The notes under the pieces are model-generated. The model saw only the letters and a list, made by a program, of their open reading frames with translations, had not been told where the DNA came from and did no database searches. Position numbers and translations under genes: made by a program. From assembly GCA_948567375.1 (NCBI GenBank), contig OX419761.1, positions 46,910,243-46,974,242 on the forward strand: 64,000 nt of DNA, written 5' to 3'. This document shows, in pieces, positions 2,062 to 56,158 of the stretch. Each line of letters starts with the position of its first letter. Positions within the stretch are counted from its first letter, which is position 1. The stretch comes from Lunularia cruciata (lineage: Eukaryota > Streptophyta > Marchantiopsida > Lunulariales > Lunulariaceae).

Positions 2062-3283
2062 AGCTGATTACATCAAAGAAGTGAGGTCAGGGGGAAATCG
2101 GGTGCAAGAACTACGAGTGTTGGTGGTATCTCCAAGCTCAGTGGATCATTGGTAGCTGGATCAAAGTTCAAATTTCCTTAGTATGCAAAAGCTTGTTGAT
2201 TGATGCAGATTTGGCAGTAAGGTAGATGATGTGCGGAAGCGTTGGCCAAAATTTTGAGCAAAGAGAAGCAATTTCAAGTGGTAGTTATAATTTTGAGCTC
2301 AAGAGGTGAAAGCAAGACCAATTTGTTGCAAGTTGGGCTCAAAAAGTGAAATTGAAGGTGGAGTTGGGAACCCACTTTTGTGAATCTGTGATTTGGAGAT
2401 ACCTATTTTTTCAATTTGGCTCGATTGAAGAATTAGCGGAGGATTTGGCGGTCAACCAACTTTAGGGTTTACTTCAGATTTGGCTGAATTTTGGCATTTT
2501 GAGGCTTTGAGGCATATAGCTATGGGCTATGAGAGGCTACAAAGGCCAACAAGCCATCTTGTTGGCATGAGACTAGCTAGTTTAGAGTAGATCTTGGTCA
2601 TTATTTGGCAAAATCTGCCCATCTTGCTAGATTGTGCCCAATAGGGTTTGACTCCTAGATCTTTGGTGCCTAGACTAGTGCCTAGCCAATTGGTCCACCC
2701 TCACTTGTTGTCCTAGTGATTGTTCCAATGTTATCTATACACCTGTAGCTTTGGCTAGGAGAGGCAATTTTATCCCATTCTTGGTGATCCTAGTAGCTTA
2801 GGACATAGATAAGAACTCCTATTATGTCAAATGCCAAATGGTGGTAGAGCCAGTCTAGTGAGGCTTTATGAGATAGAGGGTTTTTGCTTAGATTTCTTGT
2901 GATTGGACCTCCTCCATTCTCTATTTCCTATTTGTGCAGCACGTTTGTGTGAGGTGCCTTGAATTGGAGCGTTGGTTCTTTGGTGTGCTCTTGGTAGTGA
3001 GGCTGGAGTGATGACTATTCAGACTACCTTTGTTTCTCTCCGGTGAAGCAAGAAGTGATGATTTGCAGATCGTGAGAGTGCTTGTTGGAATGACAAGTTA
3101 CAAGTTGCCCTTTCTCCTAGTGTAGTTGTCTCAATTAGAGTTATATTAGTGGGTAGTGTTCCATTGGTATTGGCACTTGGTGGTGCTTAGTTGGTGTTGG
3201 TACTTGTTAGTGTTGGTTCTTGGTGGGGTACTTGAGATTGCGGTTGGTGGTTGCAATTAGTAGTTAGTGGTTACCTTATCACG
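2062..3283 (+). other. Untranslated leader of C1 between LTR and gag
   Basis: This 1.2-kb stretch has no long frame. It matches the C2 leader (45542-46854, minus) and parts of C3 (55135-55418 and 63247-63906, minus). A standard initiator-Met primer site is not present next to the LTR, so the primer tRNA of this family cannot be named. The leader also holds simple TTGGT-rich repeats at about 3170-3270, just before gag. Confidence 0.65.
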
Positions 3284-5440
3284 ATGGAGTTCTTTGGGGA
3301 TTCTAGAGGGGATAACCTTGTAGTACACATTGGGTTTACTTAGAGTGGTGCTTGGTATCAGCCTATATTTCAAGTCCCAATGAAAGAGGAGATTGACTCT
3401 GAGTTGGAGTTTGACACAAGAGTTGATTTAGTTGAGAGTGCCCTTGATGTGTCCGCATCATTGTTGTGGGCTATGGATGAGATTTATGGGGCCTCCAAAG
3501 GCCCTAGGTGTTACTATAATATAGTAGGTACCATTGAGTTGGATGACTTCATCCAAGAGTTTGATAGTTGGTGTGATTTGCAGTAAATGCAGAACCCAAC
3601 TTTGTTCACACCCTTTATGGCATGGAAGGGTTGTATCAAAATTTGGAGGGTCCACCAATGGATGACTACCATGAGTTCAGAGAGCTTACTTAGAGGAGAT
3701 TTGAGTTATGGAGATAGTATTGGGCTTCGAGTTATGTCTCCATTGCTTTAGGCTCAATTTCTAGGGGTGGATCGGTTGTACCCATGAGTTCTAGCTCAAG
3801 TAGCATAAGTGGAGCTAGTGGAGGTGCACAAGCTAGAGATAGTGCTATTACGGGTGGAGGTACCGCTACAAGAGGTGGTGTAGTACAGGGGTTTAACCCC
3901 ATGGTGGAGTTCTTCTAGTATTTGAGGCAAAACTACCAAGAAGTGTGGATTGGCAAGTTGAGGAGCTTGTAGGAGTTGCAACAAAAGGTTGGAGAGAGCC
4001 TACGCAAGGCATACACTCACATGAGGCGGCTGATTAGTTTCACTCAAGGAGTTACTGAGGCCCAAATAGTCTAGTTGTGGTATGGGATATTGGACATAGA
4101 GTTGCGACATAGAGTTCGTGATGCTACGTTGTTACAAGCTACTTCGCCCACTTTGGCAATGGTCTTTGGTTTGGCTGAGTGTCTTGAGCTCATCATGGTG
4201 GGGGAGAGAGTGGTGACATCTGGATTTGGTAGGGAGACCTCATCCACAACTATGACTTCTTCTAGAGTACAGTAGAGTGCACCATGCCCAGTTGGCTTTT
4301 GAGGACAGAATGAACAACCTAGATCCTATGGAGTGAGTGGAGGGTCTAGTGGAGCTAGACCCTTACCTTCATTTTTGGATCAACAACAACCAATGAGTGG
4401 TGGTGTTGCTTGTTGGACTTACGGTGGCTCTCACCATAGGAGAGAGTGTACTTAGGGCAGTGGACCTAATACTTTTGGTGCATCACAGCCAGCACAGAGA
4501 CAATGTGAGCATTGTCATAAATTTGGTCACACTAGTGATTGGTGCTTTGACCTACACCTAAAGTTACGGAGTGGTGGGGCTGCTATGGCAGGTGGTAGAG
4601 GAGCTCGAGTTCATGGAGGACAAGATGGTAGAGGTGGTGGTAGAGGATCTACACCTAGTAGAGGTGAAGTACCTACCCTTACTTTTGATACAGCCATGGC
4701 TATGTGCATTGAACAATTGGAGCAAAGATTTGCTAGCATGGCCATAGCTTAGAGGATATCAGATTTGGGTGCTGAGGCTTCCACCTCATATGCTAGTGAT
4801 AGAGATGCTTTGGACTTCATGTACAAAGTAGCAAAAGTGGATGCATCTACAACAATGACTAGGAGTGCAATATGTGCTCTAGAGCCTAGAGGAGCATAAG
4901 TGGAGTTGGACCCACAAAGAGGAGAGGTTGGGAGACAGGTAAGACTTTCCTAGTCTTTCACACTCTCTGAGGCCATACATATGTCATCCATGGCTCCTAG
5001 ACATCCTAGTGCATGTGTGGTAGGTGGTGATGGGGTGCATGATGGACTACCTAATAGTCATCCACCTACTACAACACAGCTTGAGTCTAGCATGATGTTA
5101 GGGGCAACTCAACTGATTATGCGCTATCCTTTATTTTCAGCCAGTGACATGTGCGTATTGAGAGTTGACCCAACCCCAGTGTTCAGATTGGCTGCCATGC
5201 TTTGTGAGAGTAGGGATGATGTGGTTCCTACTATTAGAGTAGAGGTGATTGATAGTAGAGCTAACTTGGTTGAGGAGCATGGGATCCGCTCAGCAACCAA
5301 TGGTTTATGGCAGGCAGCAATGGCTAGATTTGGAGGAGTTGCCAACTAGATCGGCCTTTGAGAGAGTGAAGTTCACACCTGTTGTTGTCTTATTGGATAA
5401 CAGAGTGGGATTTTCCATTTGGTAGGACCTTCAAGGAAGG
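3284..5440 (+). pseudogene. gag: gag of C1, zinc-knuckle capsid gene, decayed
   Basis: Gag would form the retrotransposon particle and bind its RNA. I chose the ATG at 3284 because C2 has the same start (MEFFGDSRG) in the same context. The capsid part lies at about 3380-4250 and is matched by C2 at 44789-45541. A CCHC zinc knuckle of form CX2CX4HX4C (CEHCHKFGHTSDWC) lies at 4504-4548. It is followed by a Gly/Arg-rich RNA-binding stretch near 4580-4660 and a conserved tail at 5100-5345. In-frame stops occur near 3340, 3585, 3692, 3917, 3970, 4072, 4274 and later, several where C2 still has a Gln or Arg codon. The copy cannot make Gag. The family assignment is firm; the exact 3' boundary is not. 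Confidence 0.85.
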
Positions 5441-5640
5441 TCTATATACTACAATTAGTCTTATTAGACTCTAGTGTGCAACCCTTTATGTGGGTGAAGG
5501 CTGTAGTTGTCGGTCTAGGGTTTTGAAAGACCAATGTGGAGAGGTGTCCATTTCAGTTCTAGACATCTCTAGGTGGTGGCTTGACACAATACATCACACG
5601 TGGGGACCTTGTTGTCTAGGTTTAGCCAGGTCACCTGATT
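5441..5640 (+). pseudogene. Retropepsin-like protease remnant of C1
   Basis: An aspartic-protease active-site-like run, LLDSSVQPFMWVKAVV, lies at about 5461-5508. It occupies the place of the D-S/T-G motif in retroviral-type proteases. C2 has the matching LDSSAHPLMLGKVAVV near 43205-43260 on the minus strand. Its position directly after gag is the usual one. Stops before and after it show the frame is dead. The identification rests on the short motif and on order, so it is less certain than gag. Confidence 0.6.
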
Positions 5641-5649
5641 GATAGCTTA

Positions 5650-6992
5650 GTGGTAAGAGCTCAGACTATTGCAACAATAGCTAAGTCATATGATGTGCTA
5701 GTTGGGGGAGCAGTGTTATACCCCATGGGTTTCAATATCAACTATTGGGAGGAGATAACCTCTTATAGACCAAGTTGGCAGTGTGGTGAGGGACAAGTAT
5801 GTTGCCTACTAGTATGCTTCAATAGTGGTAGTCTTGGCTCACTATAGTCCGAGACCATGGCGGCTTCAGTTTCAACTTTCAATGGTTTTGTTACTTGGCT
5901 TGGTGAGTTAGTGGAAGGGAACACCCGTGCAGAGGATACTCCAATACCAAAGGAGATTGCTTGGATTTGGAGTACAAGTAGGATTGTTCCATCCACCTTG
6001 GATGTTCCTTTGTGGAGTTTAGAGGAGGCATTGTAGCAGCATGCAGATCAATTGGTGCAGCAGGCTTGGAGTGGGGCCTTTGTACCACTAGGAGACCAGT
6101 GTGAGGATGAGCCTCCAGAGTTGATTACCTTGACACCTTTGGATACCACACTCATTGCTTGGCAATATCCTGTAGAGAGAGTATGTCTATTGGAGTTGTT
6201 TGGTGAGATTAGCATCGGACTAGTTGCAATACTAGGGGGTATACGAGTACATAAGTACTTGTATATGGAGAGAGATAAGACTGCTAGGCAAGTCTCGCTC
6301 CATCATGTGGCACACTTGGCCTATTGGTATCCTGAGTTATTAATGATGTCAACAGTCAAGAGTTACCAAAAGGTCCTACCAATAGACATTTCCTAACTGG
6401 GGCGCATGATCTAGAGCGACATGGGCTTATTCATTTGGTGATTTTTGGATGGCCATGTCAAGGACATACACATATTGGCTAAGGTTTGGGTCTTAAGGAT
6501 CCTCATTTAGAGTATTTTGGAAGATGTTACGCATACTTCAACATCTCTAGGTCCATCAATCCATTTCTCCAACTTACCTTTTGGAGAACATTCCTATGAT
6601 GGGTGATTCTTGCACTAGGTGGTGGTACGTACACAATAGGTCCATTTTTTGATGGGACTTGCTATTTTGTTAGATGTAGCCAAAGTGGGATCACAAGCTC
6701 ATCATCTTTGTCTTTGGAAGACAAATCTCTTACCCATAGAGGTTCTACAACATGCATAAGATAAGATTCAATGACTAGACCACATCCTTGTTGATGACAT
6801 CTTGGATGTTGGGCGTCAATCTTAGACAATGGTACTAGCTGATAGGTCACTTATGGTAGTGGTGAACCTAGTTGGACAGCTAGAGCCGCTTTTCCCACAC
6901 TTATGGGTTTCCCAAGGTTCTCATGCTTTTCAAGAGGGAGATCCTAGACTGGTTTGGGACTCTTAGTTGGAGCAGTTGGTGATGCCCAATGT
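5650..6992 (+). pseudogene. C5 cytosine DNA methyltransferase-like domain of C1, truncated
   Basis: Enzymes of this fold transfer methyl from S-adenosylmethionine to cytosine C5. An N-terminal conserved block (VLVGGAVLYPMGFNINYW, from 5689) precedes the catalytic domain. Motif I, the SAM-binding loop, is LLELFGEISIG at 6187-6219, followed by an acidic motif II (YMERDKTA). Motif IV with the catalytic Cys is IFGWPCQGHTHIG at about 6441-6479, with Cys at 6456-6458. Motif VI is ENIP at 6584-6595. A motif VIII-like VGSQAHHLCLW starts at 6685. LVWD at about 6950-6961 leads into motif IX/X, but the copy is cut near 6992 before motif X. Frameshifts separate motifs I, IV and VI, so the copy is dead. 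Assignment is supported by the motif order and by C2, where one frame holds I to X. Confidence 0.82.
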
Positions 6993-8807
6993 TATCATGT
7001 TGTGGTTTGCGTAGCCGTAAAAAAGTAACTTATCATAGTTTATCCCCACATTAGTGGAGTAGGTATAATGATAGATCTGATGGATGAGACATTGCCATGT
7101 GAGCAATCTATGTACATTATATGTGATTGGCCATGTGAGTTACAATCTTATCATGTTTGAGGGCTCTAATATATATAGGTGAGGGAGAGTGGAGAGACGG
7201 GGTGTGGAGTCGAGGAGTCTTGAGGTGGAGGAGGACATTAGGAGTGAGAGTTGTAGTAGAGCGTGATTGTTAGAACATTAGAGGAGGCATTTGAGTATGT
7301 AATGTCCCATGCACCCAATTTGCCACTCCCAAAGCCTTTTCTCATCAGACTTCAGATTTTACACTGTGACGGCTTATGGGATTGGATGGTGGCACATTTC
7401 GGGGTGGTATTCATGGAGTTGGTGATGGGAAACCCGGATCCTATCGTCCTTTCGGTGCTTATTGATGAACATGTCTAGGACTTGATAATCTTTGTGCTTC
7501 AATAGTTGGAGAATGCCTAAAATTTTGCTCATAAGCTTCAAGGTGGAGTCGTGCGGTCCATTTGTCAAAAATTGAAGAGACTAAAGGACAAATTTCCAAG
7601 AGATTGGGTCCCAAGAGAAGGAATCTAGAGCTTTTGACCATTGGGGGAGTTTGCAAAGGGGATTCAAGGAGAAAAGAGCATAGTTGGAGACAGGAGCAAA
7701 TAGGCTACAATCTAGAGACTAAAATCAGACAATTTGTGCAGATTTTGAGGTGGATATTATAAATTGAGTCAAAGGGGGTAGAATTCATACCCAAGAGGAC
7801 AAAGTAGCCAATTGGGAGAGCTTCTTGATACATTTTCATGATCTGTTGATGGAATTGGAGAGTATAAAACGTTCTTATAGATCTGACTACAAGAAAGTCC
7901 AGTTTTGGATCAATATCAAATCAGATCTGATGGATTGATTTTGAAGCTTTTGAGATGTAACGTGTTGGAGAAGAGTTGGTTTAGAGTTTTGGCCACTCCC
8001 CAAGTTGTGGTTTGAGATACCTTATGAAAATTTCCAATCTTGTTTTTGGTTAGAGTTTGCACCTCTATGCAAAGGTTTCATATGAATTCTTGATGTAAAG
8101 AATTCAGGGTCTTGGATCAAGTATACTTGGGTCTGTAGAGCTCACAAGTTAGCTCAGCTTAGGAATTGATCTAGCTCTAGGGATTGGGATTGGATTAGGC
8201 TACAAAAATTTGCTGGAGTTTAGACAAGGACAAAAAAAGCTATTGTGAAAAATTTAGTTGGTTCTAGATCTATGGAGAGTGAGATCTAATGCAAAACATT
8301 CTACTGCAAATACTGTCATAAGCTTGGTAGAGCAATTTATCTTCCATCGTGATTGGATGTCAATTCTCCTATCTTGTGATTGTGATTGAGGGTTTGCAAT
8401 TTTTAGAGTGTTGGTAATGATAAATATACTTCTGAATCAAAAATCTAGGGAGAAATTGCCAAGAACCAAGAGCAAACCCTAAAATAGGGGCAAAATTTGC
8501 AAAAACTTGGCCAAATTTGAGAGGTTATCAGGGGAGTTTTAGTGAGCCAATTGAGGTCTATTTTTTATCATCAGAAAGCTTATCTCACAGGCTTTCCATT
8601 TAATTTTAGAACACTTGAATCAAAGCTATGAAGAAAATTTATGTTCATATAAGTTGCATAGAGTTTTCCAAATCAAGAAGACATAGGAATACTCCACTTG
8701 GAGTAGAAATTTCTTGAAATCTGAAGTCCATATTAGAGGAGACTTGGATTACAAGTTGAAATGAGATTGATGATAGAGCAAGAAGGCTCTAAAGCTCTGA
8801 AGTCCAC
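6993..8807. other. Unassigned sequence with a possible promoter stretch
   Basis: C1 homology stops near 6992. The next 1.8 kb contains no frame that I can assign. A TATA-like run (taatatatatagg) at about 7168-7182 is followed by a purine-rich stretch (7183-7250) and a 71-codon frame at 7263-7478. That arrangement resembles the promoter end of an LTR followed by a leader, but no second copy exists here to define ends. From 7500 to 8807 I see only short broken frames. The block ends where the A1 LTR remnant begins. Confidence 0.45.
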
Positions 8808-12425: not shown

Positions 12426-12458
12426 TGTAACACCCATTTATGCATGTGTGTGGTATTG
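12426..12458 (+). repeat. 33-bp stub of a family A LTR start
   Basis: The run starts TGTAACACCCATTTATGCAT and follows the A LTR 5' end for 33 bp, with one mismatch, then changes abruptly to the PHD fragment. It joins two pieces of family E type that face opposite ways. It is best read as the scar of an A insertion that was later deleted or rearranged. Confidence 0.8.
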
Positions 12459-12895
12459 CACAAGGTTTGCCATTTGGAGTCCTTGTGTTGGAAGGATATG
12501 ATAGTGTTGTTTGGAAGGATCATGTTTGCAATTGTGCGCCATGCCACCTCCCAAACATTGATGGTACTTTGGACCCAAGCTTGGTACTTGTACGGGCAGT
12601 CTTGAGGTGTATGTTATGTGGTTCTTTTGGTGGAGCTACTACTATGTTAGTGTGTGATAGCTGTTTGAGAGTATGGCATATGGCATGTATGACTCCTCCC
12701 TCATGGTGGTTCCTCAAGGATAGTGGTTATGTCCTAGATGTACTTGATCTATAAGTAGTTCATCCATTATATGGTATAGATTGCAGACAGGTGACTAACA
12801 ATGGGGCTCGTTAGCACCCGGCCTCCTGATCTTTGCCCATCATAGGGTAGACCATATACTTGGAGTATAGATGGCTATTTAGAGTTAGAAGGACT
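12459..12895 (+). pseudogene. PHD-finger fragment, likely C-terminal end of an E-type pol
   Basis: PHD fingers bind histone H3 tails, often reading lysine methylation. The frame carries a pre-PHD block (LPFGVLVLEG, NCAPCHLPNIDGTLDPS) and then the finger from 12608 to 12741. Ligands are CMLC (12608-12619), CDSC (12653-12664), H at 12677-12679 and C at 12686-12688. The last pair, CPRC, is at 12730-12741, but one base out of frame. All eight C4HC3 ligands are thus present, with a frameshift between six and two. The pre-PHD block matches what follows integrase in known PHD-bearing gypsy elements, and the E integrase (minus strand) breaks off exactly there. The remaining 150 bp have only broken frames. 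Confidence 0.78.
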
Positions 12896-16683: not shown

Positions 16684-16818
16684 GGGCCTAACCGCTAACC
16701 AGGGAGGCAATTGTTGCACTTTAGAATCTATGTATGACTTAGGTGTGAGTTATATGTCTATAGCATATGATGTTGACAACAATGTATGTTTTGTAGCGAT
16801 GTATATACGTATGACAAC
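16684..16818 (+). repeat. Repeat X, left copy
   Basis: From about 16709 it reads TTGCACTTTAGAATCTATGT and so on to ATGACAAC at 16818. It recurs at about 17271-17395 with roughly 80-85% identity by eye. The two copies flank the C-family solo LTR. X is far too long to be a target duplication, so it is a separate small repeat or a terminal part of some other element. Confidence 0.6.
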
Positions 16819-17258
16819 TGTCACGCCATTTGTAGTGTCATATCTAGATTGCTCAAACACTAGAGTTGGAGTGATAGTAGTTAGAGGTATTTTAGCAATT
16901 ACATGTAGACTACTTTCCAATAATCAGATTTTGTGTTCAAGGTACTAACTTCATGGTAGAGCCCACCGTCACTTTGCATCATTTGCACCGTTGGGTGTGC
17001 CGTCAATAGGACTATTAAGGTTTTAGACCTAGCTCAAGTCTAGGGGTATACTTTTGAAGTGCAGCTCCAAAGAGCTGACTTCTCTAATATTGAGCCTTCA
17101 AGTGTTTGGCTATGGTGGATAGAAGCCAATGAGCATCACCTAAATTCTCTTAGCTAGAGTGGGTGTGGCTTGATTGTAATCAATGCCCAATTGTTGGTAG
17201 TTTATAGAGTGACAAATCAAGTATTGATATGAGTTGAGTTGATTTGAGTGGTGTAACA
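16819..17258 (+). repeat. Solo LTR of family C
   Basis: Starts TGTCACGCCATTTG and ends GTGTAACA, matching the 5' LTRs of C1 and C2 along its length. No leader or gag follows. The right flank, ACCTGATTA, resembles the base run just inside the LTR in C1 and C2, so the true LTR end may lie a few bases further on. No clean target duplication is visible (ACAAC left, ACCTG right). Confidence 0.75.
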
Positions 17259-17390
17259 ACCTGATTATTGTGGCACTTTAGAGTCTATGTATGACTTATG
17301 TGTGAGTCATGTGTCTATAGTGTATGATGTTGAAAACAATGTATGTTGGTTGTGTAGCAATGTATATAAGCATGACAACTTGTAGACCAC
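17259..17390 (+). repeat. Repeat X, right copy
   Basis: The second copy of the roughly 110-bp X sequence (TGTGGCACTTTAGAGTC from 17274 to about 17390). It includes a TGTATATAAGC run at 17365-17376 that could be a TATA box. Direct orientation and similar length on both sides of the solo LTR suggest a tandem arrangement interrupted by, or including, the LTR. Confidence 0.55.
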
Positions 17391-35819: not shown

Positions 35820-35873
35820 TGTATCATAGAAGGTAGAGAGACCTTCACTTTAAGGGCAAAGTGAAAACTTAGT

Positions 35874-35884
35874 CCGAAGGTAAA
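35874..35884 (+). other. Decayed polypurine tract of A4
   Basis: Reads CCGAAGGTAAA directly before the LTR start, where A6 has CCGGGGGTAAA. Two G-to-A changes break the G run. Confidence 0.75.
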
Positions 35885-35978
35885 TGTAATACCTATTTGT
35901 GCATGTGTATGGTATTGTGATATTTAGCTTGGTATTACAAGCACTTGAGAGATATTTTTTACATAGAGATAAAGGATG
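35885..35978 (+). repeat. A4 3' LTR, first 94 bp only
   Basis: Starts TGTAATACCTATTTG and follows the A LTR to ATAAAGGATG at 35978, then switches to family C (minus). The rest of the LTR is deleted, so the target site on this side is lost. Confidence 0.85.
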
Positions 35979-36981
35979 TCACAAGTGTCTAAGTAGTGAT
36001 GCCTATCAAGTGCATCTTATGCTGCTCTGCCAAGCCAAGGCTCACAATCCAAGTCAAACAGTTCAAGTCCATAGCCTGACCAAACACTTGAAGCCTAGAT
36101 GCCTCTAATACTACTAGAACAACGGTAATACCGGTGCAAAAATCCATCACCCGCTCTCTCTCATTGGCGTTGGGCTCCACAAACTCTAAGTCCCAAACAA
36201 GTCCAGGTCCTCCCTCTTGAAAAGCATGAGAGCTTGGGAAACTCATGAGTGTGAGAAATGTGGCTCTAGGCTATCCAACTAGGTTCACCTCTACCATAGA
36301 TGACCTATCAGCCACTACCACCGTTTGAGACTGACGACCAACATCCAAGATATTATCAACAAGGATGTAGTCAAGTCGTTGAATCCCATCATAAGCACAT
36401 TGTAAAACCTCTTTGGGTAAGAGGTTCATCCACCAAAGACAAAGATAATGAGCCTTTGATCCTACTTTGGTTGCATCTAACAATATAGTAGGTCCTATCC
36501 AAGAATGGACCTGATGTGTACTTGCCACCACCTTGGTGCAAGAATGACCTATCAAAGGAACATTCTCCAAAAGATAAGTTGGAGAAACGGACTGATGAAC
36601 CTAGAGATATCATAATATCCATAACATCTCCCAAAACACCCCAGAACAAGGATCTTGAAGACCTAAACCTTGGCCAACACGTGTATATCTCTAACATAGC
36701 CATCCAAAAATCACCAAGTGAATAGGCCTATGTCTCTCCATATCATGCATCCCAAGTAAGGTAATGTCTATTGATAGGGCCTTATGGTAACCTTTGACTG
36801 CTTACATCAGTAATAACTAAGGATACCAATAGGCCAAGTGTACCACATGATGTAGAGAGACTTGCCTAGCAATCTCATCTCTCTCTACATACAAGTACCT
36901 CTATACTTGTATACCTACATGTAATACCGCAGCTAGTCCGGTGTTAATCCCACCAAACAACTCTAGTAGACATATCGCCTC
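35979..36981 (-). pseudogene. C5 cytosine methyltransferase-like catalytic domain of C2, motifs I to X in one frame
   Basis: The whole catalytic domain (about 331 codons) is in a single frame on the minus strand, broken only by stops. Motif I is LLELFGGINTG at 36937-36969, with motif II YVERDEIA after it. Motif IV, at 36691-36715, reads IFGWLC then TAG where C1 has GWPCQ: catalytic Cys kept, Pro changed, Gln codon now stop. Motif VI is LLENVP at 36556-36570. A motif VIII-like VGSKAHYLCLWW lies near 36465-36430. The motif IX area (EPNANERERVMDF) and motif X (GQAMDLNCLTW, from 36081) end at 35989. Stops lie at 36901, about 36840, 36828, 36691, 36640 and others, several at former Gln or Arg codons. 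No indel is needed. This supports descent from a functional enzyme; substrate and specificity are unknown. Confidence 0.85.
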
Positions 36982-37380
36982 TGTAAAAGACCGAATCCAA
37001 GGAGAGAAATAGGAGAATGGAAACTCACATTGGGACACTTGAATGAGTGAAAACTCCGAATGCCTGGCATGAGCTTCGGCTTTGGTATTTATAGGTAGCA
37101 TATAAGGCCCTTGAGAAGCTTCCTTGAGCCACTTTCTTAGAGTGCAAGCCAAGTTAACTAGGAAGCTTCTCAAGAAGCTTCCTTCTAGAAGTTGCCTACT
37201 TGGCATGCAAGCTAAGCTAGTTAGAAGCTTCTAGAAGCTACCTGATTGGGGCGCAAGTTAACTAGTTGGGAAGTTTCCCAAGAAGTTTCCTAGATGCTTT
37301 TGGAATATTCTAGGCTAATTTGGCGTATTCCCTACTTCATTAGCCTTACTAGCTACATTGCTAAACTCCATACTATTACA
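36982..37380 (-). repeat. D 3' LTR
   Basis: 399 bp with TG/CA ends; in element sense it starts TGTAATAGTATGG and ends CTTTTACA. A TATAAATA box lies at 37086-37093 (minus). It contains direct copies of an AGAAGCTT-type motif (HindIII-like AAGCTT runs at about 37110-37240). Confidence 0.9.
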
Positions 37381-38470
37381 TATTCCTCCACCACTAGTTG
37401 GTGACGTCCTTGTTGCCATTGAAGCTTCAAACTCTTGGATGGCCGTCTTTGCATTTTGGAGGTGAGAAAGAGGTTCCCATGTGGCATCATGAAGTAGATA
37501 CCCTTTCCAAAGGACCTTGTACTCCGTATGTTGGCGGCGTCCTTGTTGGATGTGGCAACATGCAAGGATATGATCAACTTTGTACTCCTCATGATCATTG
37601 ATAGGGATTGGGGAAGGAGGAGGTTGGACACGAGAGGAGAAAGAAGATGGATTATGAAGAAAGGGTTTCAACTTGGAAACATGAAAGATAGGATGGATGC
37701 ACATATGAGAAGGCAAAGCAAGTCGATAAGTAACAAGAGAGACAATTTGGGTGACATCAAAAGGTCCTATCCAATTAGGGGCAATTTTATGAACTTGGGT
37801 ATCAAGTGGGAGGGGTAGATTACTAGAGGATAACATAACTTGATCACCAACTTCAAAGGTGAGCTCACAACAATGATGGTCCGCATATTGTTTTTGACAA
37901 TTGTGAGCAACAAGGAGGTGAGATTTGGCTTGTTGGAGAGATTCGGAGATGGTGGTCAAGAAGGTTGAAGTATGGGAGACTTGAGACGAAGGAGGAGCAA
38001 GAAGAGAATCTGGGACAAGAGGATCTTGGCCAAAATTGAGAAGGAAAGGAGAGAATCCGGTGCTTGCTTGTTTAGAATTATTGTATGCAAACTTTGCAAC
38101 TACAAGACATTGATCCCAATTGGTATGGTGAATGTTGATGAAGGCACAAAGCATATCTTCCAAGGTGCAATTTACACGTTCAGTTTGTCCATCAGTTTGA
38201 GGATGATAGGCTATGGATAAAGCAAGTTTGGTGCCAAGTAGCTGGAAGAGTGCTTGCCAAAACTGTCCGGTGAAGCGAGGATCACGTTTGGAGATGAGTA
38301 CACTTGGCATCCTATGATGTTTGAAGATATTATGAAGTGGAGTTGCGCCATGGTTGGAGCATCCATAGTATCAACCATTGGTGCCAAATGGATTTGCTTA
38401 TTAAGCTTATCCACAAACACCACAATTGTTGTGTGACCTTGTTGTGTCTTGGGTTAGGAGGTGATGAGAT
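37315..38470 (-). pseudogene. D integrase with C-terminal chromodomain
   Basis: The frame 37315-38310 is open for 331 codons. It begins inside the integrase core (VLISKRDPRFTGQFW, second catalytic Asp; TDGQTERVN, catalytic Glu) and continues through the SH3-like part (IGPFDVTQIV). It ends with a chromodomain (EYKVDHILACC, TEYKVLWKGYLLHDATWEP), the histone-binding module that targets chromoviruses to heterochromatin. The last ~20 codons lie in the 3' LTR. The upstream core part with the first Asp (HVSLDLITS) is near 38450-38490. Stops separate the parts. Confidence 0.88.
37381..37392 (-). other. Polypurine tract of D
   Basis: In element sense GGTGGAGGAATA, directly before the 3' LTR. The pol frame reads straight through it into the LTR. 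Confidence 0.75.
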
Positions 38471-40284
38471 CTAAGCTCACATGTTCCCAACAAGTAGCTA
38501 GAATGGGAAGTGGCTGAAGGAGTCCACTTGACTTCTGGTTACTGGCCTTGTTATGTTGACAACTCTCACATGATTGGACAAATTTTGAACATCTTGTGTC
38601 ATGTTGGGCTACCACCATTGGCGTTGGAGGGTGCCCAAGGTCTTGTCCACTCCCATGTGACCAACTATTGGTAAATCATGGGCTTCTTGAAGGCACAAAA
38701 GTCAAAGATCACCTTTGGTTGGAACATAGATTTGGTCCGTATGGAATAGAAGGCCTTCCTTGAAGGAGAAGGTGTTGTACTCCTTGTTGCATGTTGTCAA
38801 ACAACCATGCACCATTTGGAAGAAGGGATCACCATTGTAGAGCTGATCAAAACTTGTTATGGACCTTAAGGTCAATTGATACCGTTGTAATTGCCGTTGT
38901 GATGAGAGGAAGAGCTTTCAAATCAGGTCGTCATGATAGAGCATTAGGGATGACATGGAACCGACCTGGTTTGTACCTAAGTTTGATGTCAAACAATTGG
39001 AGTTGCTCTTCCCATCAATGATGTCTACTCTTCATGTGCTCCAAGTGTAGGGTTTGCAATAATGGCTTGTGATCAGTTTGCATGATCACTTGTTTCTCCA
39101 AGAGATAATGCATCCATACCTTGGTGGCATATACCATTGCAAGTTGTTCCCAATCTCAAGCAGAGTAATTTCTTTCAGTTGTATTTAGACGGCAAGACAC
39201 AAAGGCAATGGGATGTAGTCCAATTCGGAATTCTTGTTGCAACACAACTCCAATTGCAAAGTTAGAAGCATCAAAATCAACCACACAAGGCAGTTGAGGA
39301 TCATATGGTTGAAGAATGGGTCTTGAAGACACCATATGCTTTAACTTTTGGAATGCTTCTTCATGCTTGGTGGTCCACTAGAAGCTCAAGTTCTTTCCTA
39401 AAAGGTCAGCCAATGGTGCTGCCACATGAGCATAATAGTGGATGAACCATTGGTAAAAATTGGCCAATCCATTGAATGCTCATACTTTTGTAGCATCCTT
39501 TGGAGTAGGCCAATCAATAATAGCCTTGATCTTCTCTTCTTCCATCTTGATCCCTTTTGATGAGATCTTATGACCCAAGAAGGTAACCTCCTTCTGCAAA
39601 AGGCACACTTTGACTTCTTGTAGTAAAATTTCCATTGTTGTAGTCGTCTTAGGACTTCTTGCACATGATTCATGTGTTCTCCCTCTATCTTGCTATAGAT
39701 TAAGATATCATCCAAGAACACCACCACAGACCGATCCAATAGTCCATCCAACACACCCGATGCATCTAATCCATGAAGATTGTTGGAGCATTAGTGAGTC
39801 CGAAAGGTAGACTTTCCACTCAAAATGCCCATACCTTGTGCAAAAGGCAGTCTTTTGTACATCCTCTCTATCAATAGGAATTTTCCAATAGCCGCTATGA
39901 AGATCCAACTTGGAAAAGTAGTGTGCTCCACTTAGTTGATCAAGCATGTCATCAATCCAAGGCAAGGGATATGCATTCTTCACGGTTTGCTTATTGAGCC
40001 CACGATAATCAATACAAAAACAAAGTCCTTCATCTTTCTTTGGAACAAATAGTATTGGTGCTCCCCAAGAAGAGGTACTATGTCATATGAAGTCCTTCTC
40101 CAACAACTCTGTAAGTGTTGTTTTCAACTCCTCTAACTCCTTTGGTGAGAGCTGATAGATCGGTCTACTAACTAAACCCTAAACCCTAAACTCCTTGGCA
40201 ATAACTCAATCTTGAAGGGCATACCTTGATTGGAGGGTAATCCCTTTGGTAGATCATCTAGAAACACATCCACAAACTCCTTAA
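38471..40284 (-). pseudogene. D reverse transcriptase, RNase H and integrase zinc finger
   Basis: Minus strand. RT blocks are [15 protein letters not shown] and [15 protein letters not shown] at about 39860-39980, and [19 protein letters not shown] at about 39670-39730, with the catalytic DD. RNase H shows VVDFDASNFAIGVVLQQ near 39230-39290 and TDHKPLLQTLHLEHM near 39030-39080. An integrase zinc part (CESCQHNKAS) is near 38540-38580. Stops and frameshifts are frequent. Confidence 0.85.
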
Positions 40285-40929
40285 CTATCCGATCAACCAT
40301 TGCTTGATGAGGCTCTCGGCCCTCGTAGTTTGTTCTTGTGCAATCGGCTTGATCCACACCATGAATACAAACTTATCTTCCTCCAAACCTTGCTCTATGG
40401 CTGCTTTATTAACAAAATTCCCTTCTAGGGACTCATCTCTCTTCCAAGCTTGCTCACTGGTTGCCTTCTTGGTAAACTTCCCATCTTGGGACTGACTATT
40501 CTTGGGTGTCTTACTCAAAGGTGCCAGACAACCTAATCGGAAATTTCTACCTTGGTGTTTTACTTGAATTTGGCATTGGGTCCAATCAAATTGAACCTTA
40601 TGATGTTCAAGCCAAGGTAGACCCAAAATGATATCATAGTGTAGAGGTGCCACTACAAACCTCATACACTCCAATTACGTCTTCCCAACCTTGAAGGTAA
40701 CAAGATGCGAGGTGCAAAATGCAAAACCCTTTCTACCATCCACCATCATCAAACTACTTCCAATCATTGGCTTGATATGAATACCCAATTCCTTTGCTAC
40801 TTGCATAGACATGCAATTCTTTGAACTTCCAAAATCAACCAAAATCCTACAACCCCAATTAGATATCATACCTTCCAAGTGAAGCAAACCTGCATAGGTC
40901 AAGCCTTCAATCCCATTGGAACTAATCAA
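40285..40929 (-). pseudogene. D protease region
   Basis: The open frame at 40675-40929 holds CRILVDFGSSKNCMS, where the retropepsin D-S/T-G reads D-F-G. It continues after a stop with DIILGLPWLEHH, the second conserved protease block, in the frame at 40285-40674. It follows gag and precedes RT as usual. Confidence 0.8.
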
Positions 40930-41860
40930 GCTCCCAATAGATGGCTCAAAATCTCCTACTAGGATTCCTTGTTTCCCTGATCATTCCGCTCCACAACCTC
41001 CACCTAGGCAACTTGTCGAGGTCATCCATTCTTGATTGGACATCTAGCAATGCAATGCCCTAATTGGTGACAATAAAAACAACCACCATTTTATCATAGT
41101 TTCTCTCTATCTACCTTGCCAAGTAGTCTTTGTTGAATGGCATCAATCTCCATTGGTGTTGGCTCCTCCATTTGTGTGTAGTGTATTGGTAGGCTCTGTG
41201 GAGGTTGAGGTCGAGACCAAGTTATTGCCACCAAGTAATCAAAACATTTGGCCAACCGCATGACTTCCTCCAAGTGTTGTGGCTCTTGTATGGTTACCTC
41301 TAATTTAGTTCTTGCCTTCAAGCCCCTCACAAATTGATCCAAAGCTTCACCTTCCAATATATCCGGAATTTGCATGATGTTGTTCTGGTATTGGATGATG
41401 TAACTTCTTACACAGCCAATCTATTTCAACTTTGCCAACTTATCCCGTGCAGCTTGTGTGGCATTTATGGCTTGGAACTGACTAATTATTGCACTCTTGA
41501 ATTCTGCCCATGTCAAGATTGGTGCAACAATTTGTTGTTTAGCTCACTCCACTTGGAATCTCCACCGTAGCTTTGGTACTCCATCCAATAAGCTAGAAGC
41601 CAAGAGAATATATTTTTGCTCGTCTTGTGATTGGTAGCTTCAAAATAACATTCACAATCAAAAAAAAATTTCTTCACTGCACTTGGAAGATTCTTGCCTT
41701 CAAATAGCTTGGGTTTATGGCATCTAATCCAATCTTCTCCTTCTTGAATCGGTACTCTTTCCACCTGCTCTTGTTGTCAAAGATCTCGTTCATCCAAAAA
41801 TCGAGTAAGGTACTCAATTTGTTGCTACATAGCAAGGATAACATTGGGTATTGCCGCCAT
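40930..41860 (-). pseudogene. gag: D gag
   Basis: Starts at the ATG at 41858-41860 (MAAIPNVILAM, then stop). The capsid part lies at 41094-41764, and a zinc knuckle CFYCHQLGHCIARC near 41045-41090. At least four in-frame stops. Order, knuckle and position next to the primer site fit gag. Confidence 0.82.
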
Positions 41861-42118
41861 GGTTGCTACTCTATCACACCACTCCCAATCTATCTAATTT
41901 ATTAACACATAGAAACAACACGTCCACCATTTTCCATAAGTTACAACCGGAAGCACCAAGGATTCCTCAAATATGGTGATCATATGCAGAAAATCTTGTC
42001 CAAAGTGCGAGGTGATGAATTGTGTGAAACAAGGCTTGGGTGGTACTTGGACATGAAAATCCCAATGGTTTGGTTGAAGTGGATTTGGTGATCCATAGAT
42101 TCCATCCATCCCATTCTT

Positions 42119-42130
42119 GCTCTGATACCA
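42119..42130 (-). other. Primer binding site of D (initiator tRNA-Met)
   Basis: In element sense TGGTATCAGAGC, one base inside the 5' LTR. This is the standard plant site complementary to the 3' end of initiator methionine tRNA. Confidence 0.93.
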
Positions 42131-42131
42131 A

Positions 42132-42542
42132 TGTTAAAGAGTGAATCCGAGGAGAGAAATAGGAGAATAGAAACTCACATTGGGACACTTGAATGAGGGA
42201 AAACTCTGAATGCCTAGCATGAGCTTTGGCTTTGGTATTTATAGATAGCATACAAGGCCCTTGAGAAGCTTCTCAAGAAGCTTCCTTAAGCTACTTTCTT
42301 AGAGTGCAAGCCAAGTTAACTAGGAAGCTTCTCAAGAAGCTTCCTTCTAGAAGTCGCCTTCTTGGCATGCAAGCTAAGCTAGTTAGAAAATTCTAGAAGC
42401 TACCTGCTTGGGGTGCAAGTTAACTAGTCGGAAAGCTTCCCAAGAAGCTTCCTAGATGCTTTTGGAATATTCTAGGCTAATTTGGCTTATTCCCTACTTC
42501 ATTACCTTTACTAGCTATGTCGCTAAACTCCATACTGTTACA
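42132..42542 (-). repeat. D 5' LTR
   Basis: 411 bp, matching the 3' LTR at 36982-37380 with scattered substitutions. It keeps an extra AGAAGCTTCTCA-type repeat unit. TATAAATA box at 42236-42243 (minus). Confidence 0.9.
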
Positions 42543-43600
42543 CCCTCTATTGGATACTGCCAAGCAATGAGTGTGGTATCCAGAGGTGTCAAAGTAATCA
42601 ACTCTGGAGGCTCATCCTCATTCTCATCTTCTAATCGTACGGAGGCTCCACTCCAAGCCTAATGCACCAACTAATCTACATGTTGTTGCAATGCCTCATC
42701 TGAACTCCACAATAGAACATCCAAGGTGGATGGAACAATCCCACTCATACTCCAAATCTAAGTGATCTCCTCTGATATTGGAGTATCTTCTACATGGGCA
42801 TTCCCCGCCAACAAGTCACTAGGACAAGTAATTGCATCACTAAAAGTTGAAACTAATGTTGCCATGGTCTTGGACTATAGTGAGCCAAGACTACCACTAT
42901 TGAAGCGTACTGGTAGGCAACATACCTGTCCCTCCCCAGAGACTACCAACTTGGTCTATAGGAGGTTGTCTCCTCCCAATAGTCAATGCTAAAACCCATG
43001 GGGTATACCACTGCTCCCCCAACTAGCACATCATATGACTCAGCTATTGTCACAATAGCCTAAGCTCTCACCACCGGGCTATCAGTCGGATGACCAAGCT
43101 GAACTTGGACAACAAGCTCCCCACATGTGATGTATTGTGTTGAACCACTATCTAGAAATGTTTGGATCTAAAATGGACATCTCTCCACATTGGTCTTCCG
43201 TAACTTTAGACCGACAACTGCAACCTTCCCTAACATAAGGGGATGCGCACTAGAGTCTAACAAGACTCTCTATGGTGTATAGACCTTCCCTAAAGATCCC
43301 ACCAAATGGAAATCCTCCTCTAAATATCCAATAAGACAACACCAAAGGTGAACTGTGATCTCTCAAAGGCCGGTCTAGCTGGCAACTCCTCCAGACTAGC
43401 CGCTACTAGCTGCCATAAACCATTGGTTGTTGAACGGATCCCATGCTCCTCAACCAAGTCAGCTCCACTATCAACCACCTTTACTCTATTAGTAGGAGCT
43501 GCATCATCCCTACTCTCACAAAGCATGGTAGCCAACCAAAACACTACAGTTGGGCCAACTTTCAATGTAAACATGTCACTAATTGAAAACAAAGAGCATA
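42543..43600 (-). pseudogene. C2 protease and N-terminal part of the methyltransferase region
   Basis: Minus strand. The region around 43320-43600 matches the gag tail and protease approach of C1; a protease-like LDSSAHPLMLGKVAVV lies near 43205-43260. The conserved VGGAVVYPMGFSIDYW-type block lies near 42970-43060, and the linker EPPELITLTPLDT near 42580-42620. It ends at YPIEG, where D has inserted; the frame resumes at EAICLLELF on the far side. Several stops. Confidence 0.75.
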
Positions 43601-45541
43601 GCATAATCAACTAAGCCGCCTCCAACATCATGCTAGACTCAATCTGTGTAATAGCAGGTGGCTGACCAGCAGGTAGTCTATCATGCACTCCATCACCACC
43701 TACCACGCCTGCATTGGGTCATTTAGGACCCATGGATGTCATCTGCAATGCCTCAGATAGTGTGAAAGATTGGGGAAGTTTGACCATTCTCCCAACCTCT
43801 CCTCTCTGTAGGTCCAACTCCGTTGATGCTCCTCTAGGCTCTAAAGCACATATGGCACTCCTAGTCATTACTGCAAATACATCCACCTATGTTGCTCCGC
43901 ACATGAAATTCAAAGCATCTCTATCACTAGCATATGAGGTGGAAGCCTTAGCACCCAAATCTGATCTCCTCTGAGCAATAGCCATACTAACCAATCTTTG
44001 CTCCAACTGCCCAATCCGAGTAGCCATAGCTATATCGGAAGTAAGGACAAGTACCACACCTCTACTAGGTGTAGATCCTCTACCACCACCTCTACCACCT
44101 TGTCCTCCATGAATTGGAGCTCCTCTACTACTTGCCATAGCAGCCCTACCACTCCATAACTCCGGTTGTAGGTCAAAGCATTGATCACTAGAGTGACCAT
44201 ATCTGTGACAATGCTCACAATCCGGCCTTCGGCCCTTGGGACCAAGAGAGTACTAGGCTTTTCCTTCTCGGCGCCCCGCTCTGCGTTCTCCACCCTTGGC
44301 CTTCGCTTTGAGAGAACGTCTTTGTGTTGGTTGTGATGCACTAGAGGTATTAGGTCCACTACCCTGAGTACACTCTCTCCTATGGTGAGGTCCACCACAA
44401 GTCCAACAAGCAACACCACCACTCATTGGCTGATGTTGACTTGAAAATGAATGTAAGCTCTAGCTCCACTAAGCCGTCCATTGCTCAATAGGATCTTGGT
44501 AGTCCACCGTATCCTCAAAAACCAATTAGGCGTGGTGCACTTTGCTGCACTCTAGAAGAAGTAGTAGTTGTGGATGAGCTCTACCTATCAAATCCAGATG
44601 TCACTACCCTCTCCTCTACCATGTTGAGCTCAATATGCTCAACCAAACCAAAGACCATTGCCAAAGTAGACGAAGTAGCCTGTAACAACATAGCATCACG
44701 AACTCTACATTGCAACTCCTTGTCCAATATCCCATACCAAAAATGGACTACTTGGGCCTCAATAACTCCCTGAGTGAAACTAAGGGAGTTATTGAGACCA
44801 TCTCATGCAAGTGTATGTATTGCATAGGCTCTCTTTAACCTTCCATTGGAACTCTTGCAAGCTCCTCAGCTTGTCAATCCTCACTCCTTGATAGTTTTGC
44901 CTCAAACATTGGAAGAACTCCACCATGGGGTTAAACTCAGGTACCACACCACCTCCTACAACGGTACCTCCACTTGTGATAGCACTATCTCTAGCTAGTG
45001 CACCTCCACTAGTTCCACCAACACTACTCAAGCTAGAACTTGTAGGTACATCCGATCTACTCTTGGCAACCAAGCCTGAAGTGATGGAGGCATAGTTCAG
45101 AGACCAATATTGTCTCCATAACTCAGTCTCCTCCAAATGAGCTCTCCTAAACTCATGGTAGTCGTCCATCGGCAGACCCTCCAAATGTTGAAACCCCTTC
45201 CATGCCATGAAGGATGTAAAAAAAGTTGGGTTCCGCATCTACAGCAAATCACACCAACTATCAAACTCCTTGATGAAGTCATCCAACTCAATGGTACCCA
45301 CTATACCAAAGTAGCACCTAGGGCCTTTGGAGGCCCCATAAATCTCATCCATGTCACACAAAAACAATGCAGACATGCTAGGTGCACTCTCAACTAAATC
45401 AGCTCTTGTGTCAAACTCCAACTCAAAGCCAATCTCCTCCCTAACTAGGACCTGAGATATAGGTTGATACCAAGCGCCACTTCAAGTTAACCCACTATAT
45501 ACTACAGGGCTAACTCCTCTAGAATCCCCAAAGAACTCCAT
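43601..45541 (-). pseudogene. gag: C2 gag
   Basis: Minus strand, from ATG at 45539-45541 (MEFFGDSRG), identical in start to C1. Open pieces include 45239-45421, 44789-45238 (149 codons of capsid, FHEFRRAHLEE-like) and 43887-44138 (Gly/Arg-rich, then coiled). A zinc-knuckle region CEHCHRYGHSSDQCFD lies near 44170-44220. It is less decayed than C1: one stop at 45239 and another near 45480 interrupt a mostly open first half. Confidence 0.83.
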
Positions 45542-46854
45542 TGTGACAAAGTAACCACAATTGGGACCGCAAACTGGAACCACAAATTGCGACCGCAAAC
45601 TACAACCGCAAGTACCCCACTAAGTGCCAACACCACCAAGTGCCCATACCTATGGAATACCACCCACTAATGTAACTCTAAGTGAGATAACTACGCTAAG
45701 GGAAAGGGCAACCTATAACCTTCCATCACAACACGCACTCTCATGATCTGCAAGTCATCACTTCTTGCCTCATCGGAGATAAACAAAGATAGTCTGACTA
45801 GTCATCACTCTAGCCTCACAAACGTAGTGCACAAATAGGAAGTAGAGAATGGAGGGGGCCTAATCATAAGCAATCTAAACAAAAAATCTCCATCTCATAA
45901 AGCAACACAGGACTGACTCTGCCACCATTTGGCATTTGACATAAGAGAAGTTTGAACTACGTCCTAAGCTACCAGGATCACCAAGAATGAGATCAAACTA
46001 CCTCTCATAGCCAAAGCTACAAGTGTATAGATAATAATGGCACACTCATTAGGACAACAAGTGAGGGTGGACCAGTTGGGTAGGGCACCAATCTAAGAAC
46101 AAGAGATCTAGGAGTCACACCCTATTATGCACAATCTAGCACGATGGGAAGATTTTGCCAAACAATGACCAAGATCTACTATAAACTAGCTAGCCTCACA
46201 CCAGCAACTGGATCTTTGTAGCCTCTCATAGCCCACATCCCTATGCCTCTAAATACCAAAATTTAGCCAAATAAGGCCTTTCTTCTTGCCACTTTGAACC
46301 TCCTCCAAATCTTGCAAAAACTCCACCAACTCTGGCCAAAATCTGCAAAATCTGTCAAAACTCTTCCAAATCTAAGAAAACTCCTCTAAATCTGGCCAAA
46401 ATCTGATGTAAACTCCAGCAATAATCTGACATAAAAGCTGACATAAACCCTAAACTTGGTTCACCACTTTATCCTCCGCTAACTTTCCACTTGAGCCAAA
46501 TTGAATTAACAAGTATTTCCAAATCACAAATTCACAAGAATAGCTTCCCAACTCTACCTTCAATTTACTTTCTGAGCCCAACTCGCAACAAATTGGTCTT
46601 GCCTTCACCTCTTGAGCTCAAAATCACAACCATTGCTCAAAAATTGCTTCTTCTTTGCTCAAAAATTGGCCAACGCTTCCACACACCGTCTGCCTTACTA
46701 CCAAATCTACATCAAGCAACAAGCTTCTGCACACTAGCAAAAAATTGAACTTCAATTGAGCTACCAATGATCCACCAAGCTTGGAGATACCACCAACACT
46801 CAAAGTTCTTGTACCTAATTTCCCCTTGACTTCACTTCTCCAAAGTAATCAGAT
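45542..46854 (-). other. C2 untranslated leader
   Basis: 1.3 kb without long sense frames, colinear with the C1 leader and with C3. It carries several CCAAAATCTG-type short repeats at 46260-46440 and runs up to the C2 LTR. Confidence 0.75.
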
Positions 46855-50676: not shown

Positions 50677-50725
50677 TTTACCCCCGGACTAAGTTTTCAC
50701 TTTGTCCTCAAAGTGAAGGTCTCTC

Positions 50726-56127: not shown

Positions 56128-56158
56128 TTTTCACTTTGTCCTCAAAGTGAAGGTCTCT

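What the first reader, a model, noticed from the sequence alone, without database searches (positions are those of the whole stretch)
35979..36981. A retrotransposon carrying a cytosine-C5 DNA methyltransferase domain (copy C2)
Seen: motifs I (LLELFGGINTG), IV (GWLC then stop, where C1 has GWPCQG), VI (ENVP), VIII-like and X (GQAMDLN) in the right order and one frame, without an indel over about 331 codons. Gag and protease of the same element lie upstream at 42543-45541 once nested element D is removed. Known: capture of DNMT genes by retrotransposons has been described in charophyte algae and dinoflagellates. Inference: this plant lineage has, or had, gypsy elements that methylate DNA, perhaps their own. 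That would be unusual in a land plant.
Basis: partly seen in the sequence, partly recalled or inferred. Interest (0 to 1): 0.88.

Follow-up and report, generated by a model that had tools for sequence, protein, structure and literature searches.

The report
Plant jumping gene carrying DNA methyltransferase
The stretch is a dead copy of a very common plant jumping gene that carries its own Dnmt3-like DNA-methylating enzyme, a combination known from a charophyte alga and dinoflagellates but not, in what I could search, from a land plant.

Summary
Window minus strand 36981-35977 encodes a C5-cytosine methyltransferase domain (MT), decayed (8 stops, one in-frame 9-bp loss). The same genome has 4,102 matches to a catalytic-motif 30-mer (reversed control 0). 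In 20 of 20 fetched copies MT lies between protease region and reverse transcriptase of a Ty3/gypsy element; 11 of 26 full-length MT domains are open, and the catalytic Cys and Glu are present in 26 of 26 (sample found through motif IV). MT best matches human DNMT3A (E=1e-11). Copies are young (median repeat divergence 2.3% in 18); variants shared by several copies show purifying selection on MT. Closest known: KnitGypsy-Dnmt3 of Klebsormidium nitens (Gypsy domains, Dnmt3 in Pol, DIRS-type repeats). This element has such split repeats, plus features I did not see reported for that one: a PHD finger behind integrase, a Tf1-like self-priming site with a compensatory change, 4-bp target duplications, thousands of copies. 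The host is a non-flowering plant, probably a liverwort (inference). MT is not a recent capture of the host's DNMT3. Enzymatic activity is untested. A new variant of a known kind.

The parts
35977..36981 (-). C2 methyltransferase domain, motifs I to X, 8 in-frame stops, one 9-bp in-frame deletion; cut at 35977 by a breakpoint against a truncated repeat of another gypsy family
36982..42542 (-). nested gypsy-like element D inserted in C2's MT just before motif I; LTRs 36982-37380 and 42132-42542 (K2P 0.080)
42543..42598 (-). C2: first codons of the MT region, upstream of D
   Evidence: hit 42598-42413, cut here at the D boundary
42638..43733 (-). C2 protease region, frameshifted
   Evidence: 71-83% aa identity to a young copy in three frames
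43734..45649 (-). C2 gag, frameshifted
   Evidence: 68-77% aa identity
46846..47297 (-). C2 5' terminal repeat A1
46833..46845 (-). C2 primer-site region, degenerate (CTTTGGAGAAGTG)
1636..2070 (+). C1 5' terminal repeat A1; TSD ACTT at 1632-1635
1880..1892 (+). C1 segment inside A complementary to the primer site (CACTTCTTTGATG)
2071..2083 (+). C1 primer site (CATCAAAGAAGTG)
3164..4989 (+). C1 gag
4990..6093 (+). C1 protease region
6094..6993 (+). C1 methyltransferase domain, frameshifted; GWPCQG at 6447
12455..12700 (+). C1 end of integrase and PHD-finger region
   Evidence: 82% identity
16710..16816 (+). C1 repeat B1
16818..17267 (+). C1 repeat A2 (A1-A2 K2P 0.160)
17267..17377 (+). C1 repeat B2; TSD ACTT at 17378-17381

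Best explanation
C2 is a dead 5' fragment of a young, abundant Ty3/gypsy-type retrotransposon family whose Gag-Pol carries an in-frame Dnmt3-type cytosine-C5 methyltransferase between protease region and reverse transcriptase and a PHD finger behind the integrase. Shown by sequence: the domain order, intact catalytic motifs, purifying selection, split repeats A-body-B-A-B, 4-bp target duplications, and a primer site complementary to a segment of the A repeat. Inferred: the MT is packaged with RT and integrase and methylates the element's own new cDNA (or the DNA around its insertion) de novo, so that the copy enters the genome already marked as ordinary methylated heterochromatin, while the PHD finger helps integrase choose or hold chromatin. 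Also inferred: reverse transcription is self-primed by the folded 5' end of the RNA, yields a cDNA with B-A ends (purine tract before B1, primer site after A1), and the integrated A...B form arises by circularisation and opening at the palindromic B-A joint GACAGCTGTC by the DDE integrase.
For: MT in 20 of 20 fetched copies, between protease region and RT. Genome counts (30-mers, up to 3 mismatches, reversed control 0 each): MT 4,102, RT 5,206, 5' joint 2,719, 3' A-B joint 2,922. Of 62 frames on C1 bounded by exact joints, 48 are 9.0-9.7 kb, 28 with and 20 without an exact MT 30-mer; 3 of 3 sampled frames without the exact word hold MT. Pfam: DNA_methylase, RVT_1, RNase H, Integrase_H2C2, rve, PHD. 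PDB: DNMT3A 1.4e-11, motif X aligned; Ty3 RT/RNase H 7.2e-72. Catalytic Cys and Glu 26 of 26. Variants carried by 3+ copies: MT N:S 24:30 against 100:57 for singletons (Fisher p 0.011) and 2.65:1 expected neutral (p 1e-5). A1-A2 K2P 0 to 0.077 in 18 copies (167-450 bp compared each). Split repeats. TSD in 4 of 4 fetched copies with both outer ends plus C1. Primer complement in 17 of 17 copies with a 5' end (13 exact, 4 with one mismatch), with a compensatory change in C1.
Against: No activity, transcript or methylome was examined. The K. nitens domain gave no methylation in yeast (authors call it inconclusive, PMC5890265). MT is very diverged (29% to human DNMT3A, 24% to a host DNMT3) and has odd motifs I (LFGGI) and X (GQAMDLN). 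The C-to-T decay of copies (CG 6.1%, CHG 4.4%, CHH 0.8% per site and copy) is what host CG/CHG silencing alone would give and does not show self-methylation; no MT-less family was compared. Mean dN/dS in MT is 0.34, higher than RT's 0.27 (lower than the protease region's 0.46 and integrase's 0.50); two stop variants in MT are carried by three or more copies. The fetched copies were chosen from Pfam hits, mostly with long frames, which favours intact motif IV. 15 of 26 MT copies are broken.
Confidence: 0.62

Rival explanations
1. The MT is a passenger that has lost DNA methylation activity but is kept as a structural or nucleic-acid-binding part of Pol (or methylates RNA).
For: Strong divergence from known DNMT3s and unusual motifs I and X; the K. 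nitens domain was inactive in yeast, inconclusively (PMC5890265, section 10 read).
Against: Pro and Cys of motif IV and Glu of motif VI kept in 26 of 26 copies, the motif-VIII Arg in 25 of 26. Ascertainment through the motif IV-VI stretch weakens this for those motifs.
Confidence: 0.22
2. The MT restrains the element: methylating its own cDNA or promoter limits copy number and cost to the host.
For: Purifying selection; copies carry a CG and CHG deamination signature. Proposed as one option by de Mendoza 2018 (discussion read).
Against: 4,102 MT places and repeat divergence down to zero speak of poor restraint; the same signature is expected from host MET1/CMT activity.
Confidence: 0.12
3. The MT is a bystander host gene or fragment into which gypsy elements were inserted.
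For: In C2 alone the domain is separated from gag by nested element D.
Against: 20 of 20 fetched copies, TSD-bounded copies, and a reading frame shared with gag and protease region in one 1,404-aa open frame.
Confidence: 0.01
4. The host is not a land plant but a streptophyte alga, so this is simply another charophyte case.
Against: A zf-FLZ gene (its land-plant restriction is recalled); a host gene matching DRM2 chains of the PDB at 1.6e-103 and a second DRM-like one, two DNMT3-like genes and a CMT-type gene; eight contigs of 60-85 Mb and a 112.5-kb plastid contig, liverwort-like by recall. Plastid chlL excludes flowering plants, not algae.
Confidence: 0.06

Closest known systems
KnitGypsy-Dnmt3 of Klebsormidium nitens (de Mendoza et al. 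2018, PMC5890265; abstract and sections 6, 7, 9, 10, 11 read; figures and supplement not seen)
   Same: Gypsy-type domains, Dnmt3-type unpermuted MT inside Pol, DIRS-type repeat arrangement, purifying selection on MT
   Different: Here: probably a land-plant host; 4,102 MT places (the paper says K. nitens has fewer copies than Symbiodinium); PHD finger behind integrase, self-priming site and 4-bp TSD, none of which the sections read mention for K. nitens. Common descent could not be tested: no K. nitens sequence was at hand.
SymbioDIRS-Dnmt3 and SymbioLINE-Dnmt of Symbiodinium (same paper)
   Same: Retrotransposons with a DNMT, very many copies; split repeats in SymbioDIRS
   Different: Those are DIRS (tyrosine recombinase) and LINE; here a DDE (rve) integrase and Ty3-type RT
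Tf1/sushi and plant Tcn1 elements (PMC6317226, passages read)
   Same: Ty3/gypsy with predicted self-priming
   Different: Those are chromoviruses; here a PHD finger in place of a chromodomain, an MT, and split repeats. RT clade not tested.
Animal DNMT3A/B
   Same: Same MT family by best match; animal DNMT3 also joins MT with a PHD-like (ADD) reader (recalled)
   Different: 29% identity over the aligned part; a separate PHD at the other end of Pol, not an ADD domain next to MT
Host DNMT3-like genes (L001, L004) and DRM-like genes (L002, L036)
   Same: Same enzyme superfamily, same genome
   Different: Coding parts split over separate frames, as by introns (DNMT3), or permuted (DRM); 24% identity of the element MT to L001's

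Membership tests
Ty3/gypsy retrotransposon | RT-RNase H of Ty3 type followed by DDE (rve) integrase | tested here: met
Ty3/gypsy retrotransposon | Plain LTR at both ends | tested here: not met
   split repeats A-body-B-A-B; A1-primer-site joint 2,719 and A2-B2 joint 2,922 places
KnitGypsy-Dnmt3-like elements | Dnmt3-type MT inside the Pol frame | tested here: met
KnitGypsy-Dnmt3-like elements | DIRS-type repeats with Gypsy domains | tested here: met
KnitGypsy-Dnmt3-like elements | MT under purifying selection | tested here: met
   (mean pairwise dN/dS 0.34; the published value is Ka/Ks below 0.2)
KnitGypsy-Dnmt3-like elements | RT and MT descend from the same capture | not testable with these tools
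   no K. nitens sequence available
DIRS | Tyrosine recombinase, no target duplication | tested here: not met
   rve integrase and no phage-integrase hit in six pieces (the MT-RT linker was not scanned); 4-bp TSD
Dnmt3 | C5-MTase motifs I to X unpermuted, best match to DNMT3 | tested here: met
   DNMT3A 47.6 bits, best non-DNMT3 (HaeIII) 22.1 bits
Dnmt3 | Groups with DNMT3 in a tree | tested here: inconclusive
   branch length 1.52, forks unresolved; the best tree puts MT next to HhaI (support 55/56); AU p 0.41 with animal DNMT3, 0.10 with host DNMT3, 0.40 with DRM, 0.23 with all DNMT3
Chromovirus / Tf1-sushi / Tcn1 | Chromodomain behind integrase | tested here: not met
   PHD finger found there, no chromodomain hit (one copy)
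Chromovirus / Tf1-sushi / Tcn1 | Self-priming by 5' RNA complementary to the primer site | tested here: met
   sequence complementarity with compensatory change; no RNA evidence
Active DNA methyltransferase | Catalysis | not testable with these tools
   needs an assay

The most novel reading that the evidence does not exclude
A land-plant genome of about 566 Mb has been colonised by thousands of copies of a self-priming, split-repeat gypsy element that packages its own de novo DNA methyltransferase and a histone-reading PHD finger, methylates its circular cDNA before a DDE integrase opens it at the palindromic B-A joint, and so enters chromatin pre-silenced: a retroelement that writes and reads its own epigenetic mark and has shaped the host's genome size and methylome.
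Probability: 0.2. Interest if true: 0.9.

Novelty: new variant of a known kind. Interest (0 to 1): 0.74.

Why it matters
[quoted passage not shown] If the host is a land plant, this family contradicts that, at thousands of copies and with near-identical repeats, and gives a host in which the role of element-borne methylation can be tested directly. The architecture shared with K. nitens raises the question whether one Dnmt3 capture is older than land plants or was passed horizontally. The split repeats together with a DDE integrase and 4-bp duplications pose a concrete mechanistic puzzle.

Tried and rejected
Considered and rejected: host gene beside the element (MT is inside 20 of 20 copies); recent capture of the host's own DNMT3 (24% identity against 39% between host and human DNMT3); DRM origin by recent capture (MT is unpermuted); extra cargo in the four frames near 17.2 kb on C1: in the one sampled (L042, L043) the MT stands at the usual place and the extra part matches another gypsy family, 99.3% identical to window 55941-56391. 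An early count of 249 differences for C2 was a misregistration over the 9-bp gap; the aligned count is 134 of 1,005. A search of viral contigs with the MT found nothing. A tree gave no resolved place for MT. Structure prediction was not run: its stated rule admits window proteins and loci of certain tools, not those of the fetch from genomes, and the window's own MT copies are broken. Paper searches: for methyltransferase-bearing elements in plants, 35 for a PHD finger with a methyltransferase domain, 56 for split repeats, 88 for self-priming (CC-licensed PMC text only, no preprint server; one search listed 20 of 164 papers, 10 of 19, the others all they found). None of the listed titles and abstract starts showed a land-plant case.

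Full report
What is there. The minus strand at 36981-35977 encodes a C5-cytosine methyltransferase (MT) domain with motifs I, IV, VI, VIII-like and X in order. Against a young copy from the same genome it aligns over 338 positions at 76% amino-acid identity; 134 of 1,005 aligned bases differ, 89 of them C-to-T or G-to-A, with one 9-bp in-frame deletion and 8 stops. The stop after the catalytic Cys arises at a CHG site (CAG to TAG), and the same stop occurs in two of three other sampled copies (L040, L041), which were however chosen for lacking an exact motif-IV word. It looks like ordinary decay of methylated cytosine. C2 also keeps gag (45649-43734), the protease region (43733-42638) and a 5' repeat (47297-46846), with element D (36982-42542) inserted in MT. 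Downstream it ends at 35977 against a truncated repeat of another gypsy family; its RT, integrase and 3' end were not found in the window. C1, on the plus strand, has both ends, and its target duplication ACTT is intact.

The family. The window lies in a 566-Mb assembly. PF00145 gave 2,161 first-look candidates; 123 were scored and all passed the cut-off; most of these hits cover profile positions 48-120, a few are host genes. Thirty-letter words, up to 3 mismatches, gave 4,102 places for MT motif IV, 5,206 for RT, 2,719 for the 5' repeat-primer joint and 2,922 for the 3' A-B joint, each with 0 for the reversed control. Words differ in conservation (0.988 for MT, 1.0 for RT in the copies aligned), so the ratio is only a guide. 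Of 80 exact MT places on contig C1 below 57.4 Mb, 45 have an exact 5' joint, 37 an exact 3' joint and 28 both at the expected distance (exact matches only). Of 62 frames on C1 bounded by exact joints, 48 are 9.0-9.7 kb long, 28 with and 20 without an exact MT word; 5 are shorter and 9 longer. Three frames without the exact word were sampled and all three hold MT, two with stops in motif IV.

Anatomy. I fetched 20 copies from the Pfam list, mostly with long frames, plus three earlier. In 20 of 20 the order is gag, protease region, MT, RT-RNase H, integrase; 19 of 20 have the PHD finger, the other being cut off within integrase. Pfam on pieces of one copy: DNA_methylase 34 bits, RVT_1, RT_RNaseH, Integrase_H2C2, rve, PHD 45.7 bits; nothing for gag and protease pieces, where CCHC knuckles and LDSGA are visible by eye (recalled motifs). 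RT is closest in the PDB to Ty3. The PHD finger is closest to fingers of CHD4, PHF12 and KMT2D. It resembles H3K4me0 readers (recalled), which is a lead, not a test.

Ends. The repeats are split: A (450 bp) at the 5' end and B (107 bp)-A-B at the 3' end, also in C1. The element begins TGTC and ends GACA; the internal B-A joint of young copies reads GACAGCTGTC. Four-letter duplications flank 4 of 4 fetched copies with both outer ends (CATA, ACTC, ATGG, TAGC) and C1. A purine tract precedes B1 and the primer site follows A1, so plain reverse transcription would give B-A ends; the integrated form is that molecule circularised and opened at the B-A joint. This is inference from sequence. The primer site CATCAGAGAAGTG was found in 17 of 20 copies, the three others having no 5' repeat in the fetched stretch; its complement lies about 190 bp upstream inside A in all 17, exact in 13 and with one mismatch in 4. 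C1 has CATCAAAGAAGTG and CACTTCTTTGATG, a compensatory change; C2 has the C1-type complement but a degenerate primer site. That is the self-priming layout known for Tf1/sushi and predicted for plant Tcn1 (PMC6317226, passages).

Is the MT kept? Of 26 full-length MT copies (partial or split ones left out: L009/L010, L037, L040-L042), 11 have no stop or indel, 11 have stops only, 4 have indels; Pro and Cys of IV and Glu of VI are present in 26 of 26, Arg of VIII and Gly of X in 25 of 26. The sample was found through the motif IV-VI stretch, which biases those motifs. Nonsynonymous to synonymous variants in MT: singletons 100:57, shared by three or more copies 24:30, neutral expectation 2.65:1; RT gives 85:60 and 12:19, the protease region 113:47 and 22:26, integrase 95:46 and 18:12. 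Shared against neutral: p 1e-5 for MT, 6e-5 protease region, 3e-4 RT, 0.12 integrase; shared against singletons: 0.011, 0.002, 0.034, 0.28. Mean dN/dS: MT 0.34, RT 0.27, protease region 0.46, integrase 0.50. MT is therefore constrained about as much as the rest of Pol. Two stop variants in MT are carried by three or more copies, which tells against perfect purging or shows recurrent hits. Repeat divergence A1-A2 in 18 copies runs from 0 to 0.077, median 0.023, over 167-450 bp each; C1 is 0.160.

Origin. MT matches DNMT3A best (1.4e-11), the best enzyme outside DNMT3 being HaeIII (8e-4). The host has two DNMT3-like genes, two DRM-like genes and a gene of DNMT1/CMT type, whose best PDB matches (127 bits) are labelled DNMT1 and include 4fsx, maize ZMET2 by recall. 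The element MT is 29% identical to human DNMT3A and 24% to host DNMT3, while host and human DNMT3 share 39%. The tree does not resolve MT; its best version even puts MT beside bacterial HhaI, with support 55/56, and no tested grouping is rejected at 0.05. A recent capture from the host's genes is unlikely; an old capture or transfer from elsewhere remains open.

Host. The assembly has eight contigs of 60 to 85 Mb holding 558 of 566 Mb, a 112.5-kb contig with rbcL and chlL, hence plastid, and one zf-FLZ gene. chlL excludes flowering plants and FLZ argues for a land plant (both recalled). Eight large chromosomes (recalled), this size and gypsy bursts fit the liverwort Lunularia cruciata (581 Mb estimated, bursts of Ty3/Gypsy; PMC9985172, passages read; 'methyltransferase' does not occur in its text), but the name is not established.

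Methylation signature. In the aligned copies C-to-T changes hit 6.1% of CG, 4.4% of CHG and 0.8% of CHH sites per copy; in C2 39%, 28% and 9%. Copies have been methylated at CG and CHG (inference). Host enzymes suffice to explain this.

Known and new. de Mendoza et al. 2018 (abstract and sections 6, 7, 9, 10, 11 read) describe KnitGypsy-Dnmt3 with Gypsy domains, DIRS-type repeats, Dnmt3 in Pol and purifying selection; its domain did not methylate in yeast, inconclusively. A 2025 paper (PMC12344493, passages read) repeats that some DNMT3s are embedded in retrotransposons of streptophytes and dinoflagellates, naming LTR Copia and DIRS families. PMC6338049 (passages read) says such transposons are not present in land plants, 'such as tracheophytes'; if only vascular plants were meant, a liverwort case would not contradict it. 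My ten searches showed no land-plant case in their listings. The kind is known; the probable land-plant host, the abundance, the PHD finger, the self-priming site and the duplications make it a new variant. That it works by methylating its own cDNA is the most likely reading, not a shown one.

Noticed in passing
window 1880-1892 and 2071-2083; young copies likewise: Primer site complementary to a segment of the A repeat, with a compensatory base-pair change between C1 and young copies: Tf1-like self-priming in a plant gypsy element.
   Followed up: yes
L012 3403-4066; window 16710-17377: Split direct repeats (B-A-B) in an element with a DDE integrase and 4-bp duplications; the B-A joint of young copies is a palindrome.
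   Followed up: partly
L013 6817-7137; window 12455-12700: A PHD finger behind the integrase where chromoviruses have a chromodomain.
   Followed up: partly
window 10085-12501 minus strand: RT-integrase pieces of the same family (61-71% identity) in reverse orientation within C1's span: an inversion or a nested inverted fragment.
   Followed up: no
window 34368-35978, 50512-50957, 55941-56391 and others: A second abundant gypsy family, 91-99% identical to the insert of one 17.2-kb frame on C1; four frames on C1 are close to 17.2 kb, which suggests repeated nesting into the MT element (one of four sampled).
   Followed up: partly
G000 C7:31.99 Mb and C1:51.67 Mb (L001, L004): The host keeps two DNMT3-like genes, in several exons, beside two DRM-like genes.
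   Followed up: partly
MT motif IV codon after the catalytic Cys (L040, L041, window C2): The same CAG-to-TAG stop at a CHG site recurs in three copies (two of them chosen for an inexact motif-IV word): perhaps a deamination hot spot at the catalytic motif.
   Followed up: no
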